This document shows, one piece after another, positions 13,262 to 16,610 of a stretch of DNA of 64,000 nt. The position numbers and the translations under genes were made by a program. The notes below the pieces were generated by a model that saw nothing but the letters and a program-made list of their open reading frames with translations, searched no databases and was not told where the DNA came from. Position 1 is the first letter of the stretch, and each line of letters starts with the position of its first letter. Source of the stretch: an uncultured SAR86 cluster bacterium (lineage in GTDB: Bacteria; Pseudomonadota; Gammaproteobacteria; Magnimaribacterales; Magnimaribacteraceae); the NCBI GenBank assembly GCA_902630715.1, contig CACOVO010000003.1:1-64000 (forward strand), read 5' to 3'.

Positions 13262-13339
13262 GGGTCTGTAGCTCAGCTTGGTTAGAGCGCACCCCTGATA
13301 AGGGTGAGGTCGGAAGTTCAAGTCTTCCCAGACCCACCA
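13262..13339 (+). tRNA. ileT: tRNA-Ile (anticodon GAT)
   Basis: A complete cloverleaf: acceptor GGGTCTG pairs with CAGACCC, then discriminator A and an encoded CCA. The anticodon loop CTGATAA gives GAT, with a CACCC/GGGTG stem and a normal T arm (GTTCAAG). It is the intact copy at the left border of the integrated element: its last 47 bases recur at 16564-16610. A -10-like TAATAT lies at 13239-13244, with no convincing -35 box. Confidence 0.96.
13293..13339 (+). repeat. attL-like 47-bp direct repeat (3' part of tRNA-Ile)
   Basis: This stretch, from the anticodon stem to the CCA end, is identical over 47 bases to 16564-16610. The bases on either side differ. It marks the left junction of an element that entered the tRNA gene and restored its 3' end, the usual outcome of tyrosine-recombinase integration. 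Confidence 0.9.
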
Positions 13340-13430
13340 CTCATCTCAATAGAGATAGGCTTTAATAAAAGATTTCAGGAAGATTTGCAAAAATATGCCT
13401 TGCTTCAGCTTTTCTAATTCAATAAAAATC

Positions 13431-13455
13431 TAGGGGAAATTTAGGGGAAAATTTA
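13431..13455 (+). repeat. Left pair of AGGGGAAA repeats (arm-type-site candidate)
   Basis: AGGGGAAA occurs at 13432-13439 and 13443-13450, two copies in the same orientation with an 11-base period. The same pair with the same period occurs at 16490-16508 near the other end. Such paired repeats inside both ends resemble arm-type binding sites of tyrosine recombinases. The rest of 13340-13517 shows no gene. Confidence 0.6.
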
Positions 13456-13517
13456 GCCTTCCCTTAAACTTTTCTGTTAAGTTATTGGCATGAAATTGGA
13501 TATTTCGAAAGACATAG

Positions 13518-14576
13518 ATGGGAATTGATTGGGATTGGTATCTCAAGAATGCTTGCATTCTTTTAGAGGGAGATGATAAGCAATTTGATTGGATTTTAGA
13601 AAGACTTAAGTCCAATGTAGGTGATAAGTATATAGAGTTAGAAGAAGATTCTCCTGACTATTTATTTGCTAAATATAGATATAGGATTATTTCGTTAGCT
13701 TACGTTAGGGCCGCTCTAGTCCTTACTCATCATGACGAAGGCATTGATGAAGATGAATATGATGATTGGAATGAAAAGTTAGGGATGATTGCTCTTAACG
13801 GAAATCCTAATGAGCATTTTACAATCCCAAGTAAATCAATTGAGCATATAGGGTTAGAAAATCTAAAAGAGCCAGCAGAACGTTATGGTAAAAAGGAAAT
13901 GGCATCCTTTCAAAGTGCTAGTGTAAAACTAGTTACTTTTCATTTAAAAACTGTTTCAGAAAAAGGCGAGGGACGACATGTTGAAATAGGCAAGGCACTC
14001 ATCAATTTATATCTCAACTGTTTTGAAAGTTTCATAGATGGAGAGTTTAATGAATTAGATGATATTGATTTTGATTTAACTATTAATTATGTAAGCGGCC
14101 AATTTAGAGGACAAACTAATTTCGCAAAGGATCTCATGAGGGCTTATCAAAATGAAGAATCAATTCATGAAGAGTTTGAAGATGAAGAGCCAGAAGAAGA
14201 ATCTGTTTATGAAAGTTCTGAGGAAGAATTCCTAGATAATATAGATGAAGATGCGATTGAAGACCCTGAATACAGTGAAGAAGAGCTTGAAGAGTTAGCT
14301 ACAATATTAGTTTCTGGAGGTGAAGATCAATTAGCAGAGCTAGAGTCAATGACAAAGGCTGAGATCAAAGAATGGGCAGATGCGTTTGAATTCAATGTAC
14401 CATTGTCTCTTAGCAAGGCAGAGATGATTGAAAGATTTATAGAAGAAGTGGATGAGAATGTTGAATCAGAATATGAATTTCCAACATCTATGACGGAGAT
14501 GATACTGTGGCTAGTAGGCGCATGTTTATTCGGTGCTTTTGTTTTGGCACCTTTGCTTGACTATTTATTGTATTAA
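13518..14576 (+). CDS. Unrecognised acidic protein with SAP-like segment and C-terminal membrane anchor
   Basis: 352 aa, no family recognised. Residues 1 to about 200 look globular and begin with the motif GIDWDWYLKNA. Residues 215-265 are extremely rich in Glu and Asp and are probably disordered. Residues 280-318 (LESMTKAEIKEWADAFEF and what follows) resemble a SAP/HeH-type helix-extension-helix, often a DNA-binding motif. Residues 327-350 form one hydrophobic helix, suggesting a tail anchor in the inner membrane. A GAAAG ribosome site lies 7 bases before the ATG. First and largest gene of the tRNA-Ile element. Confidence 0.75.
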   Translation: MGIDWDWYLKNACILLEGDDKQFDWILERLKSNVGDKYIELEEDSPDYLFAKYRYRIISLAYVRAALVLTHHDEGIDEDEYDDWNEKLGMIALNGNPNEHFTIPSKSIEHIGLENLKEPAERYGKKEMASFQSASVKLVTFHLKTVSEKGEGRHVEIGKALINLYLNCFESFIDGEFNELDDIDFDLTINYVSGQFRGQTNFAKDLMRAYQNEESIHEEFEDEEPEEESVYESSEEEFLDNIDEDAIEDPEYSEEELEELATILVSGGEDQLAELESMTKAEIKEWADAFEFNVPLSLSKAEMIERFIEEVDENVESEYEFPTSMTEMILWLVGACLFGAFVLAPLLDYLLY

Positions 14577-14586
14577 GGAAATTAGT

Positions 14587-14919
14587 TTGAAGCCCAATCT
14601 AAAATTAGCCCTCAAACCAAAGTCATTTAATAAGGACTCACTAGACTTATTACTTAAAACACAATGGGAACTTGTTGTCTTAAAGGCTCGTGTGGATGAA
14701 GCAAGAATTAATCCCATTACAGATAAAGAACTTGAAACTGCTATAGCCTTAACGGGACTTAAAGCTACTGTGTTTGAAAGAAGATTAGGGATGTATGAGT
14801 ATCATCACGGAGAAACCAAAGAGTATTGGATAGCTAAACATGATTTTGAAGGTTTCCTGCTTGATAATGAAGAATTGATGTACGAATATAGAGAATGGTT
14901 AGAGGATGCAAGGGTATGA
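14587..14919 (+). CDS. Hypothetical protein of the tRNA-Ile element
   Basis: 110 aa starting at TTG 14587, chosen because AAGGA lies 7 bases upstream and the longer frame (from 14533) would overlap the previous gene by 44 bases. The protein is mixed charged and likely helical (DLLLKTQWELVVLKARVDEAR, then KELETAIALTGLKATVFERR) and ends in an aromatic-acidic tail. I do not recognise a family. It lies 10 bases after the acidic anchor protein, so the two are probably co-transcribed. Confidence 0.65.
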   Translation: MKPNLKLALKPKSFNKDSLDLLLKTQWELVVLKARVDEARINPITDKELETAIALTGLKATVFERRLGMYEYHHGETKEYWIAKHDFEGFLLDNEELMYEYREWLEDARV

Positions 14920-14937
14920 AAATTTTGATTATTAGTT

Positions 14938-15306
14938 ATGGGCATATTTGATTCAATCTTTGGAGGGCGTCAACTGTGTAAAGAAGATGCCAGTCAAATG
15001 GCTGTTTCAATAGGGTTAAATCTCTTCAACGGAACTTTCCCTTTGGAAACATTCATGCAAATTTCAGAAAAATTTGTCAATGAATTGGTTAAAGATTCTT
15101 TTCCTGGCTATTCAATTGATTCAGACCAATCAAAACAAATAGTAAGACTTGGCTTAAAGATTTTAAATGAGAATAAGCAATATCTATCTGACTTATCACA
15201 ATTAGAAAATTACTTAAAGAATCCAACTGAAGAGAATAAACCTTCACAAAAAGTCATTACACCAAAATTATACGATTCTGAAGACCTATCTTTATTTATT
15301 GACTAG
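14938..15306 (+). CDS. Hypothetical protein of the tRNA-Ile element
   Basis: 122 aa with no recognised family. The start MGIFDSIFGGR resembles the amphipathic beginnings of small membrane-associated proteins. The middle is helical and soluble (FPLETFMQISEKFVNELVKD) and the last 35 residues are polar and probably flexible. There is no clear ribosome-binding site. It lies 18 bases after the preceding gene in the same direction. Confidence 0.6.
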   Translation: MGIFDSIFGGRQLCKEDASQMAVSIGLNLFNGTFPLETFMQISEKFVNELVKDSFPGYSIDSDQSKQIVRLGLKILNENKQYLSDLSQLENYLKNPTEENKPSQKVITPKLYDSEDLSLFID

Positions 15307-15747: not shown

Positions 15748-15770
15748 AATATTTGCTTTATGCAAAGTAA

Positions 15771-15800
15771 TTGAAATCAATAAAAAAGCCCTCATATATA
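15771..15800 (+). promoter_or_regulatory. Candidate sigma-70 promoter inside the tRNA-Ile element
   Basis: TTGAAA (15771-15776) and TATATA (15795-15800) are separated by 18 bases. They lie 25 bases before the TTG start at 15826, in the 78-base gap after the membrane-protein gene. They would give the last two genes their own transcript. Confidence 0.45.
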
Positions 15801-15825
15801 AGTAGTAGCAAATATAGGTCTTACT

Positions 15826-16155
15826 TTGGGTAGTAAAAAAAATCCAAAAGATAATTCCAGCGATGTTGCAAAAATAGAGGAAGCCTTACTAGAAGCATTA
15901 GGCTATGAGACTTGGGAAGATGCTGAATTAGATTCTAGTACAAAAGAAGAAGGTCCTGATTTTGATTGTGTAGGCAGTAAAGATACTTTCTTTTTGAATC
16001 CTAAAACAGTACCGGCAGTTTTATGGGTAAATCTTAATCTTGGATTTCCCCAGGGACATTGGGGTTGTCAGATTCAGGTTGATGAGCGAGACGTTTTATT
16101 AACGCTCAAGACCATTCTTGAAGATGGGCTGAGTCTCTCTACAACGTTGCACTAA
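15826..16155 (+). CDS. Hypothetical protein of the tRNA-Ile element
   Basis: 109 aa with a TTG start; no in-frame ATG is available and the ribosome site is weak. The N-terminus is Lys-rich and polar. An acidic helix follows (KIEEALLEALGYETWEDAE), then a compact C-terminal half with Cys, Trp and Gly residues (FPQGHWGCQIQVDERDVL). No family is recognised. A candidate promoter lies just upstream. Confidence 0.5.
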   Translation: MGSKKNPKDNSSDVAKIEEALLEALGYETWEDAELDSSTKEEGPDFDCVGSKDTFFLNPKTVPAVLWVNLNLGFPQGHWGCQIQVDERDVLLTLKTILEDGLSLSTTLH

Positions 16156-16171
16156 CCAATTATCTTTTAAT

Positions 16172-16396
16172 ATGAAATTAAATTTCCTTGGGAAAAAAAC
16201 AAATGTAGTTTCTATCTATTCATGGAAGCATCCTGAATTAGCAATATACGATCCTAACCGAGAGGAAGAGTTAAATTGGATGGCATGGAAAATGCGTCAA
16301 AAAATTTCTGGTGACAATAATGAGACTTATAAACCTCTCATTAGGCAAGGACCTAGACCTCAAGGGCCTTTCATCCCAAGAATCGTCTCAAAATGA
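16172..16396 (+). CDS. Hypothetical small basic protein of the tRNA-Ile element
   Basis: 74 aa, unrecognised. It is rich in Lys, Arg and Trp, with SWKHPELAIYDPNREEEL in the middle and a Pro/Arg-rich tail (IRQGPRPQGPF). It lies 16 bases after the previous gene. Its small size and basic charge could suit a nucleic-acid contact, but nothing proves this. Confidence 0.45.
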   Translation: MKLNFLGKKTNVVSIYSWKHPELAIYDPNREEELNWMAWKMRQKISGDNNETYKPLIRQGPRPQGPFIPRIVSK

Positions 16397-16563
16397 AAGA
16401 AAGACGTCTTAATCTTTAACAATAACTCACCCTGGATAGGTGTGGGCTCTATACTAATTCTTATAGTTATTTAGAAAGAAATAGTGAGTAGGGGAAAACT
16501 AGGGGAAAAATTTTGCTACCTCCTGAAAGTCAGCTATCATAAGAAGATCGGAGTTCGACTCCT
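16397..16563. other. Non-coding right end of the tRNA-Ile element
   Basis: About 170 bases without a gene, between the last element gene and the attR repeat. It contains the palindrome AAGACGTCTT and the right-hand AGGGGAAA pair. I see no integrase remnant here in any frame. Confidence 0.55.
16490..16512 (+). repeat. Right pair of AGGGGAAA repeats (arm-type-site candidate)
   Basis: AGGGGAAA at 16490-16497 and 16501-16508, two copies with the same orientation and 11-base period as the pair at 13432-13450. The pair lies 55 bases inside the right direct repeat. Confidence 0.6.
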
Positions 16564-16610
16564 CCCTGATAAGGGTGAGGTCGGAAGTTCAAGTCTTCCC
16601 AGACCCACCA
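16564..16610 (+). repeat. attR-like 47-bp direct repeat (displaced tRNA-Ile 3' end)
   Basis: Identical over 47 bases to 13293-13339. The upstream bases cannot complete a tRNA: there is no 5' acceptor or D arm. This is therefore the original 3' end of the target gene, pushed aside by the element, and not a second functional tRNA. Confidence 0.9.

What the first reader, a model, noticed from the sequence alone, without database searches (positions are those of the whole stretch)
13293..16610. A 3.3-kb tRNA-Ile element with perfect 47-bp ends and no integrase
Directly seen: bases 13293-13339 (inside an intact tRNA-Ile) and 16564-16610 are identical over 47 bp, different bases flank them, and the right copy has no 5' tRNA half. 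All six genes in between run in the tRNA direction and none is a recombinase or is recognisable to me. Known: tyrosine recombinases enter tRNA 3' ends and rebuild them with element DNA; integrase-less satellites of this kind exist for phage-inducible islands and marine tRNA-inserted elements. Inference: this is a minimal satellite moved in trans, or an island that lost its integrase. The small size is unusual and the gene set may be new.
Basis: partly seen in the sequence, partly recalled or inferred. Interest (0 to 1): 0.78.

Follow-up and report, generated by a model that had tools for sequence, protein, structure and literature searches.

The report
Integrase-less tRNA cassette in SAR86 bacteria
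A 3.3-kb DNA insert sits in an isoleucine tRNA gene of an ocean bacterium; it carries landing-site DNA for an integration enzyme but no recognisable enzyme gene, and related ocean bacteria carry similar tiny inserts with different genes, which suggests cassettes moved by somebody else's enzyme.

Summary
In detail: a perfect 47-bp repeat (13293-13339, in an intact tRNA-Ile; 16564-16610, a tRNA 3' part only) bounds 3,271 bp with six same-strand orphan genes and no recognisable recombinase. Relatives have the empty site: a site-specific insertion. The genus includes a SAR86-labelled record.

New here: (1) near each end lies a pair of TAGGGGAAA sites, 11 bp apart, at set distances from the crossover region, as expected of integrase arm sites. 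(2) G008 (same genus) has a 2.2-kb integrase-less insert in the same tRNA, with the same end layout but unrelated genes; its empty site in a relative is 97.85% identical. (3) Two G008 cargo genes recur (53% and 43% protein identity) in a 1.0-kb integrase-less insert in a tRNA-Thr of another family of the order. G115 of that genus has a 1.5-kb insert there with other genes but a nearly identical right end (99%; flanks 76-86%).

Best reading (0.6): non-autonomous elements with conserved att ends and swappable cargo, moved in trans by a tyrosine recombinase. No helper was found, movement was not observed, phage packaging is untested. Decay after integrase loss is the main rival.

The parts
13262..13339 (+). 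tRNA-Ile (GAT), whole; its 3' part supplied by the element
   Evidence: that the 3' part is element DNA is inference from the attL/attR layout
13293..13339 (+). left copy of the 47-bp repeat (attL core)
13431..13450 (+). left arm-type pair TAGGGGAAA-TT-TAGGGGAAA
   Evidence: binding not tested
13518..14576 (+). orphan gene, 352 aa (P0001), net charge -59
14587..14919 (+). orphan gene (P0002; TTG start chosen by me)
14938..15306 (+). orphan gene, 122 aa (P0003)
15349..15747 (+). orphan gene, 132 aa, hydrophobic by eye (P0004)
15826..16155 (+). orphan gene, 109 aa (P0005)
16172..16396 (+). orphan gene, 74 aa (P0006)
16489..16508 (+). right arm-type pair TAGGGGAAA-AC-TAGGGGAAA
   Evidence: binding not tested
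16559..16580 (+). right core CTCCTCCCTGATAAGGGTGAGG, shared (Y at one base) by the inserts of window, G008 and G029
16564..16610 (+). right copy of the 47-bp repeat (displaced tRNA 3' part, attR core)

Best explanation
It is a recently inserted, non-autonomous integrative element of 3,271 bp. Shown: precise insertion at the anticodon-loop side of the tRNA-Ile 3' part, leaving a whole tRNA on the left and a displaced 3' part on the right; empty sites in relatives; no recognisable recombinase; a paired motif near each end at spacings shared with other inserts; other SAR86 inserts with the same kind of ends and unrelated cargo. Inferred: a tyrosine recombinase made by another element (phage, prophage or larger island) binds the arm pairs (TAGGGGAAA) and the core (CCTCYC-TGATAAGG-GTGAGG), excises the circle and inserts it again; cargo is exchanged between the fixed ends over time. 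What the six genes do is unknown; host- or phage-interaction cargo is a guess.
For: Exact 47-bp repeat. Empty site: joined flanks span the junction in G003, G017, G014 and G007, 4 of 13 sites compared. No recombinase recognised in the cargo; the own assembly has one PF00589 hit, 302 aa, on another contig. TAGGGGAAA occurs 4 times in 64 kb, all at the two ends. The 11-bp pair GGGGAA-N5-GGGGAA occurs 5 times in 476,171 bases of 57 SAR86-order loci held here, all 5 at insert ends. Distances from the core: +137/+139 left (window/G008), -76/-80/-79 right (window/G008/G029). G008: 2.2-kb insert, other genes, no family match to a recombinase, joined flanks match G011 over 2000 nt without gaps at 97.85%. 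L077 (IMG/VR): the same motif on both sides of a partial tRNA-Ser next to a recombinase-like gene. tRNA-Thr inserts of G109 and G115: no integrase seen, right-end 96 nt 98.96% identical against 76.4% and 85.6% in the flanks, cargo unrelated.
Against: No helper with these att sites was found in 8 viral-contig scans, in the order (and, which had no positive control) or in a class sample (1 of 369 genomes, the own one). Movement was not observed. The own assembly is only 63.7% complete. 1 of 100 shuffles of the window also reached 4 TAGGGGAAA. The L077 gene scores below the Pfam cut-off (E 0.041) and only 1 of 5 contigs with the motif shows an att-like setting. Only two inserts (window, G008) have both arm pairs. 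Right ends of the tRNA-Thr inserts bear a different repeat (TGTAGTCA), seen only on that side. Inserts without arm pairs exist in the same tRNA-Ile (G026, G010).
Confidence: 0.6

Rival explanations
1. A decayed element (CIME-like): it arrived with its own integrase, lost that gene by deletion, and is now stuck.
For: att sites without integrase fit the definition of a CIME (PMC5704250, passages). Damaged second tRNA copies and nested remains in G029 and G010 show that decay happens at this site. No helper was found.
Against: Both arm pairs and a perfect repeat are kept; no relic of an integrase was recognised; two inserts with unrelated cargo lack the gene in the same way; the G109 and G115 right ends are nearly identical between species while the cargo differs.
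Confidence: 0.25
2. A phage satellite proper: the element is excised, and packaged, by a specific helper phage, and the orphan genes manipulate that phage.
For: Small size, orphan genes in one direction, the same motif beside a recombinase-like gene on a viral contig. It overlaps with the best explanation, of which it is the phage-specific form.
Against: No match of cargo in 50,697 phage records (G008 165-aa protein) or, for P0001, P0003 and P0005, in viral contigs; no primase, AlpA or packaging gene recognised.
Confidence: 0.2
3. Gene exchange by homologous recombination through the tRNA and its neighbours, without site-specific recombination; the repeats are by-products.
For: Several inserts in these tRNA sites carry ordinary genes without arm pairs (G026, G010).
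Against: Insertion is exact at the repeat with gapless empty sites (G008); arm pairs keep their distance to the core.
Confidence: 0.07
4. One of the orphan proteins, most likely P0001, is an unrecognised recombinase, so the element is autonomous.
For: P0001 begins just inside the left arm pair, where an integrase gene often lies; its fold is unknown (mean pLDDT 38.7).
Against: No HxxR motif in any of the six, P0001 net charge -59; the G008 insert has no relative of it.
Confidence: 0.05

Closest known systems
CIME (cis-mobilizable element)
   Same: attL and attR kept, integration genes absent (definition seen in PMC5704250, passages)
   Different: CIMEs are decayed ICEs or IMEs that move with a neighbour in cis; no neighbouring element was seen here, and inserts share ends but not cargo
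Small marine phage satellites (PICMI; also VEIME and tycheposons, known to me by name)
   Same: small, integrated at a fixed chromosomal site, no capsid genes recognised
   Different: PICMIs are defined by integrase, AlpA, primase and Fis (PMC10803314, passages), none recognised here. VEIMEs and tycheposons are mentioned with tyrosine recombinases and integrases (PMC10187409, passages); their source papers were not read
CALIN cassette arrays and MITEs
   Same: non-autonomous, moved by an enzyme in trans through DNA sites (PMC11389934, passages)
   Different: those use integron integrases with attC sites, or transposases with inverted repeats; here tRNA att sites with arm-type direct repeats
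Dehalococcoides ssrA genomic islands
   Same: direct repeats of an RNA-gene 3' end, several islands at one site with varied cargo; sixteen of the islands have the integration module, implying that others do not (PMC3146451, passages)
   Different: serine recombinase, tmRNA gene

Membership tests
tRNA-targeting integrative element of the tyrosine-recombinase kind | direct repeat of the tRNA 3' part at both ends | tested here: met
tRNA-targeting integrative element of the tyrosine-recombinase kind | empty site in relatives | tested here: met
tRNA-targeting integrative element of the tyrosine-recombinase kind | arm-type repeats on both sides of the core | tested here: inconclusive
   motif pairs present at shared spacing; protein binding could not be tested
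tRNA-targeting integrative element of the tyrosine-recombinase kind | own integrase gene | tested here: not met
   an unknown type cannot be excluded
CIME | attL and attR kept, integration and transfer genes absent | tested here: met
CIME | derived by decay from an ICE or IME | tested here: inconclusive
   no relic recognised, no integrase-bearing relative found
CIME | tandem with an ICE or IME that mobilises it | tested here: not met
   no third copy of the tRNA 3' part in the window; the one PF00589 hit of the assembly is on another contig
PICMI | integrase, AlpA, primase and Fis genes | tested here: not met
   no profile match
Phage satellite in general | transfer in particles of a helper phage | not testable with these tools
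   needs virus-particle DNA or induction
Tycheposon / VEIME | defining genes as given in the source papers | not tested
   source papers not found in the library

The most novel reading that the evidence does not exclude
SAR86 bacteria carry a gene-cassette system built on tRNA genes: 1-3.3-kb elements made only of fixed integrase-recognition ends plus interchangeable cargo, moved in trans by tyrosine recombinases, spreading between species and between tRNA targets while cargo is exchanged. It would be the tyrosine-recombinase counterpart of MITEs and integron cassettes.
Probability: 0.38. Interest if true: 0.78.

Novelty: new variant of a known kind. Interest (0 to 1): 0.62.

Why it matters
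SAR86 is an abundant surface-ocean lineage (general knowledge), and how such small genomes gain new genes is poorly known. If 1-3-kb elements with only att ends and cargo move by borrowed integrases, tools that look for an integrase beside a tRNA overlook them; the repeats and arm sites described here give a way to count them and to look for their helpers.

Tried and rejected
Known cargo families: no match over a curated cut-off in Pfam for the six window proteins or the four G008 proteins, none of use in PHROGs, PADLOC, NCBIfam (PADLOC and NCBIfam were given three of the G008 proteins). Weak hits not used: DUF7399 E 0.02, endonuclease VII PHROG E 0.026, a PHROG transcriptional regulator E 0.031 (G008), HslU E 0.013 (G008), CorA-like E 0.053, PCNA chains E 0.011-0.015.

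Kinship of P0001 or P0003 with the G008/G109 cargo protein: suspected by eye, not supported by hhalign (probability 0.1%).

Structures: P0001 model mean pLDDT 38.7, not searched. The 165-aa G008 cargo protein gave a helical model (mean pLDDT 68) with no match at E 0.001 in PDB or BFVD.

Other places with GGGGAAAN{2,8}GGGGAAA: 7 of 10 matches in 203 genomes lie elsewhere, no tRNA found in any of the 7 loci, and none has the 11-bp pair; treated as unrelated. The 10 loci around non-Xer-like integrases of the family's genomes have no GGGGAAA-type pair; TGTAGTCA occurs once in L060 and twice in L065, not in an att-like setting.

A hairpin before the right arms: clear in G008 (z -3.12), not significant in the window (z -0.63); not claimed.

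Full report
OBSERVATION. The repeat is exact over 47 bp and the adjoining bases differ. Only the left copy belongs to a whole tRNA. The insert is 3,271 bp by start-to-start distance, G+C 0.338 against 0.377 in the flanks taken, with six ORFs in the tRNA direction covering 2,715 bp.

HOST. The window lies in G000, a 1.26-Mb assembly, 63.7% complete. Two relatives could be tied to named records because contig length and place agree: G008 with CACNCK010000016.1 (uncultured SAR86 cluster bacterium AG-920-D21) and G029 with CAJWKH010000001.1 (uncultured Gammaproteobacteria bacterium). 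G008 is in the window's genus, hence the SAR86 label.

EMPTY SITES. In a search of 61 genomes including the own one, G003, G017 and G007 show left and right flank overlapping by the tRNA 3' part. Of 20 loci fetched, 13 were compared with flanks joined in a script. The window flanks align across the junction in 4 of 13 (G003 74.8%, G017 72.4%, G014 72.6%, G007 84.3% over only 178 nt). Those of the G008 insert do so in 3 of 13 (G011 97.85%, G016 97.0%, G018 95.5%, each 2000 nt without gaps), those of the G029 and G026 inserts in 1 of 13 each (G021, 94%). The right flanks of window, G008 and G029 differ, so these are separate insertions into one target gene. An exact probe for the tRNA 3' part rings in 26 of 35 family genomes; 4 have two copies near each other on one contig (G000, G008, G026, G029), and G006 has one on each of two contigs.

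ENDS. TAGGGGAAA occurs four times in 64 kb, two at 11-bp spacing near each end; 1 of 100 shuffles also reached four. G008 has GGGGGAAAATAGGGGGAA and GGGGGAAATCTGGGGGAA at like distances from the core (left +137 window, +139 G008; right -76, -80), and G029 has a right pair at -79. The pair GGGGAA-N5-GGGGAA occurs 5 times in 57 loci of this order (476,171 bases, chosen because they hold these tRNA sites, integrases or the related pattern), all 5 at insert ends (the same 5 in the 50 loci). In 203 genomes of the order, GGGGAAAN{2,8}GGGGAAA has 10 matches: 3 at these two inserts, 7 elsewhere, without a tRNA in the loci fetched. The right core CTCCTCYCTGATAAGGGTGAGG is shared by the window, G008 and G029 inserts; a scan of genome contigs for CTCCTCNCTGATAAGGGTGAGGTC finds only the G029 and G008 records, the window's own record possibly being left out there. 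I read CCTCYC-TGATAAGG-GTGAGG as two core sites around a crossover; this is inference.

SAME MOTIF BESIDE A RECOMBINASE-LIKE GENE. Of 5 IMG/VR contigs with TAGGGGAAANNTAGGGGAAA, one, L077, has the motif on both sides of what reads by eye as the 3' half of a tRNA-Ser (ARAGORN finds no whole tRNA), with a 413-aa gene starting about 115 bp further on. Its Pfam score for Phage_integrase is under the cut-off (E 0.041); catalytic-looking motifs were judged by eye. In the other four I saw no such setting (ORFs and tRNAs by eye). This supports the arm-site reading but does not identify the helper; no relative of that protein was found in 203 genomes, a search without positive control.

CARGO. No window protein has a family match over a cut-off or a tblastn match at E 0.01 in 50,697 phage records. 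P0001 has none in plasmids. P0001, P0003 and P0005 have none in viral contigs. P0001 and P0005 occur in 1 of 203 genomes of the order, the window's own. Window and G008 cargo have no protein match at E 0.01 and only 12-30-nt chance-level DNA matches.

A SECOND SITE. The 165-aa G008 cargo protein has a match in 2 of 203 genomes: G008 itself and G109, of another family of the order. In G109 it lies in a 996-bp insert between a tRNA-Thr (TGT) and the second copy of a 54-bp repeat, next to a small hydrophobic protein gene that also has a G008 relative (43% over 42 residues); no integrase-sized ORF is present. Of 26 genomes of that genus, 20 gave a match to the site; 19 sites were examined (G106, at a contig end, was not fetched). 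Four of 19 have a second 3' half within 3 mismatches over 47 nt: G109 and G115 (0), G117 (1), G123 (3); the bases before the G123 copy resemble a tRNA 5' part by eye, so it may be another tRNA-like copy. The G115 insert (1,525 bp, two lipoprotein-like genes by eye) has no cargo match to G109 by plus-strand blastn or by protein, but its right-end 96 nt outside the repeat are 98.96% identical, against 76.4% (left) and 85.6% (right) in the flanks. Joined G115 flanks span the junction in G114 (90.5%), G108 (94.0%), G117 and G123, joined G109 flanks in G105 (82%). That right end carries TGTAGTCA repeats instead of GGGGAAA pairs, so a different recombinase would be needed.

MECHANISM. Shown: precise insertion, no recognised recombinase, conserved ends, unrelated cargo, and a cargo module shared by inserts in two different tRNA genes. 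Inferred: excision and insertion by a tyrosine recombinase in trans; exchange of cargo between fixed ends. Not shown: any helper, circle, transfer or packaging.

KNOWN KINDS. [quoted passage not shown] its PICMI model has integrase, AlpA, primase and Fis (PMC10803314, passages). The hitcher review describes MITEs and CALINs as moved by an enzyme in trans (PMC11389934, passages). Tycheposon and VEIME source papers were not found in the library; I know of them by name and through PMC10187409 and PMC10803314 (passages). The tmRNA islands carried by a jumbo phage encode their own integrase (PMC12595487, passages). PMC12416821 (passages) only names tycheposons. 'SAR86' with 'phage satellite' gave no paper; the seven papers with SAR86, genomic island, integrase and tRNA were seen as a listing. 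My searches showed no description of integrase-less tRNA inserts in SAR86; most subscription journals are not in that library.

VERDICT. A real and apparently recent site-specific insertion; best read as one of a set of integrase-less, cargo-swapping tRNA elements in SAR86, moved by a borrowed tyrosine recombinase (0.6). Decay after integrase loss is the main rival (0.25).

Noticed in passing
L039 (G029:C1), 3341-6880: A 3.6-kb insert in the same tRNA-Ile carries what look by eye like NorC/NorB-type and c-type cytochrome genes and a universal-stress-like gene, followed by a damaged tRNA 3' end and then a right end with arms and core: apparently two nested insertions.
   Followed up: partly
L038 (G026:C14, read on the minus strand), 3147-3747: A 600-bp insert with a single lipoprotein-like gene and a perfect 47-bp repeat, without arm pairs; a similar-looking gene start follows the tRNA-Ile in G005 (L044) without the repeat.
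   Followed up: partly
L035 (G010:C6, read on the minus strand), 2490-5370: A penicillin-acylase-like gene (by eye) follows the tRNA-Ile, and a badly damaged second tRNA 3' end lies behind it: an older insertion.
   Followed up: no
L096 (G117:C11), 927-1458, and L095 (G115:C3, read on the minus strand), 2296-2652: A 480-bp insert in tRNA-Thr holds one 118-aa membrane-protein-like gene; a very similar gene lies just outside the displaced repeat in G115, which suggests stacked cassettes.
   Followed up: partly
window 13518-14576: P0001 has a net charge of -59 over 352 residues and a C-terminal hydrophobic stretch; a weak resemblance of residues 230-308 to endonuclease VII (E 0.026) was not followed.
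   Followed up: no
L067, L069, L071 (G044, G176, G187): A GGGGGAAAAACTGGGGGAAA-like pair (10-12-bp period) stands a short way before a TonB-receptor-like gene start (by eye) in three genomes of one genus; perhaps a regulatory site.
   Followed up: no
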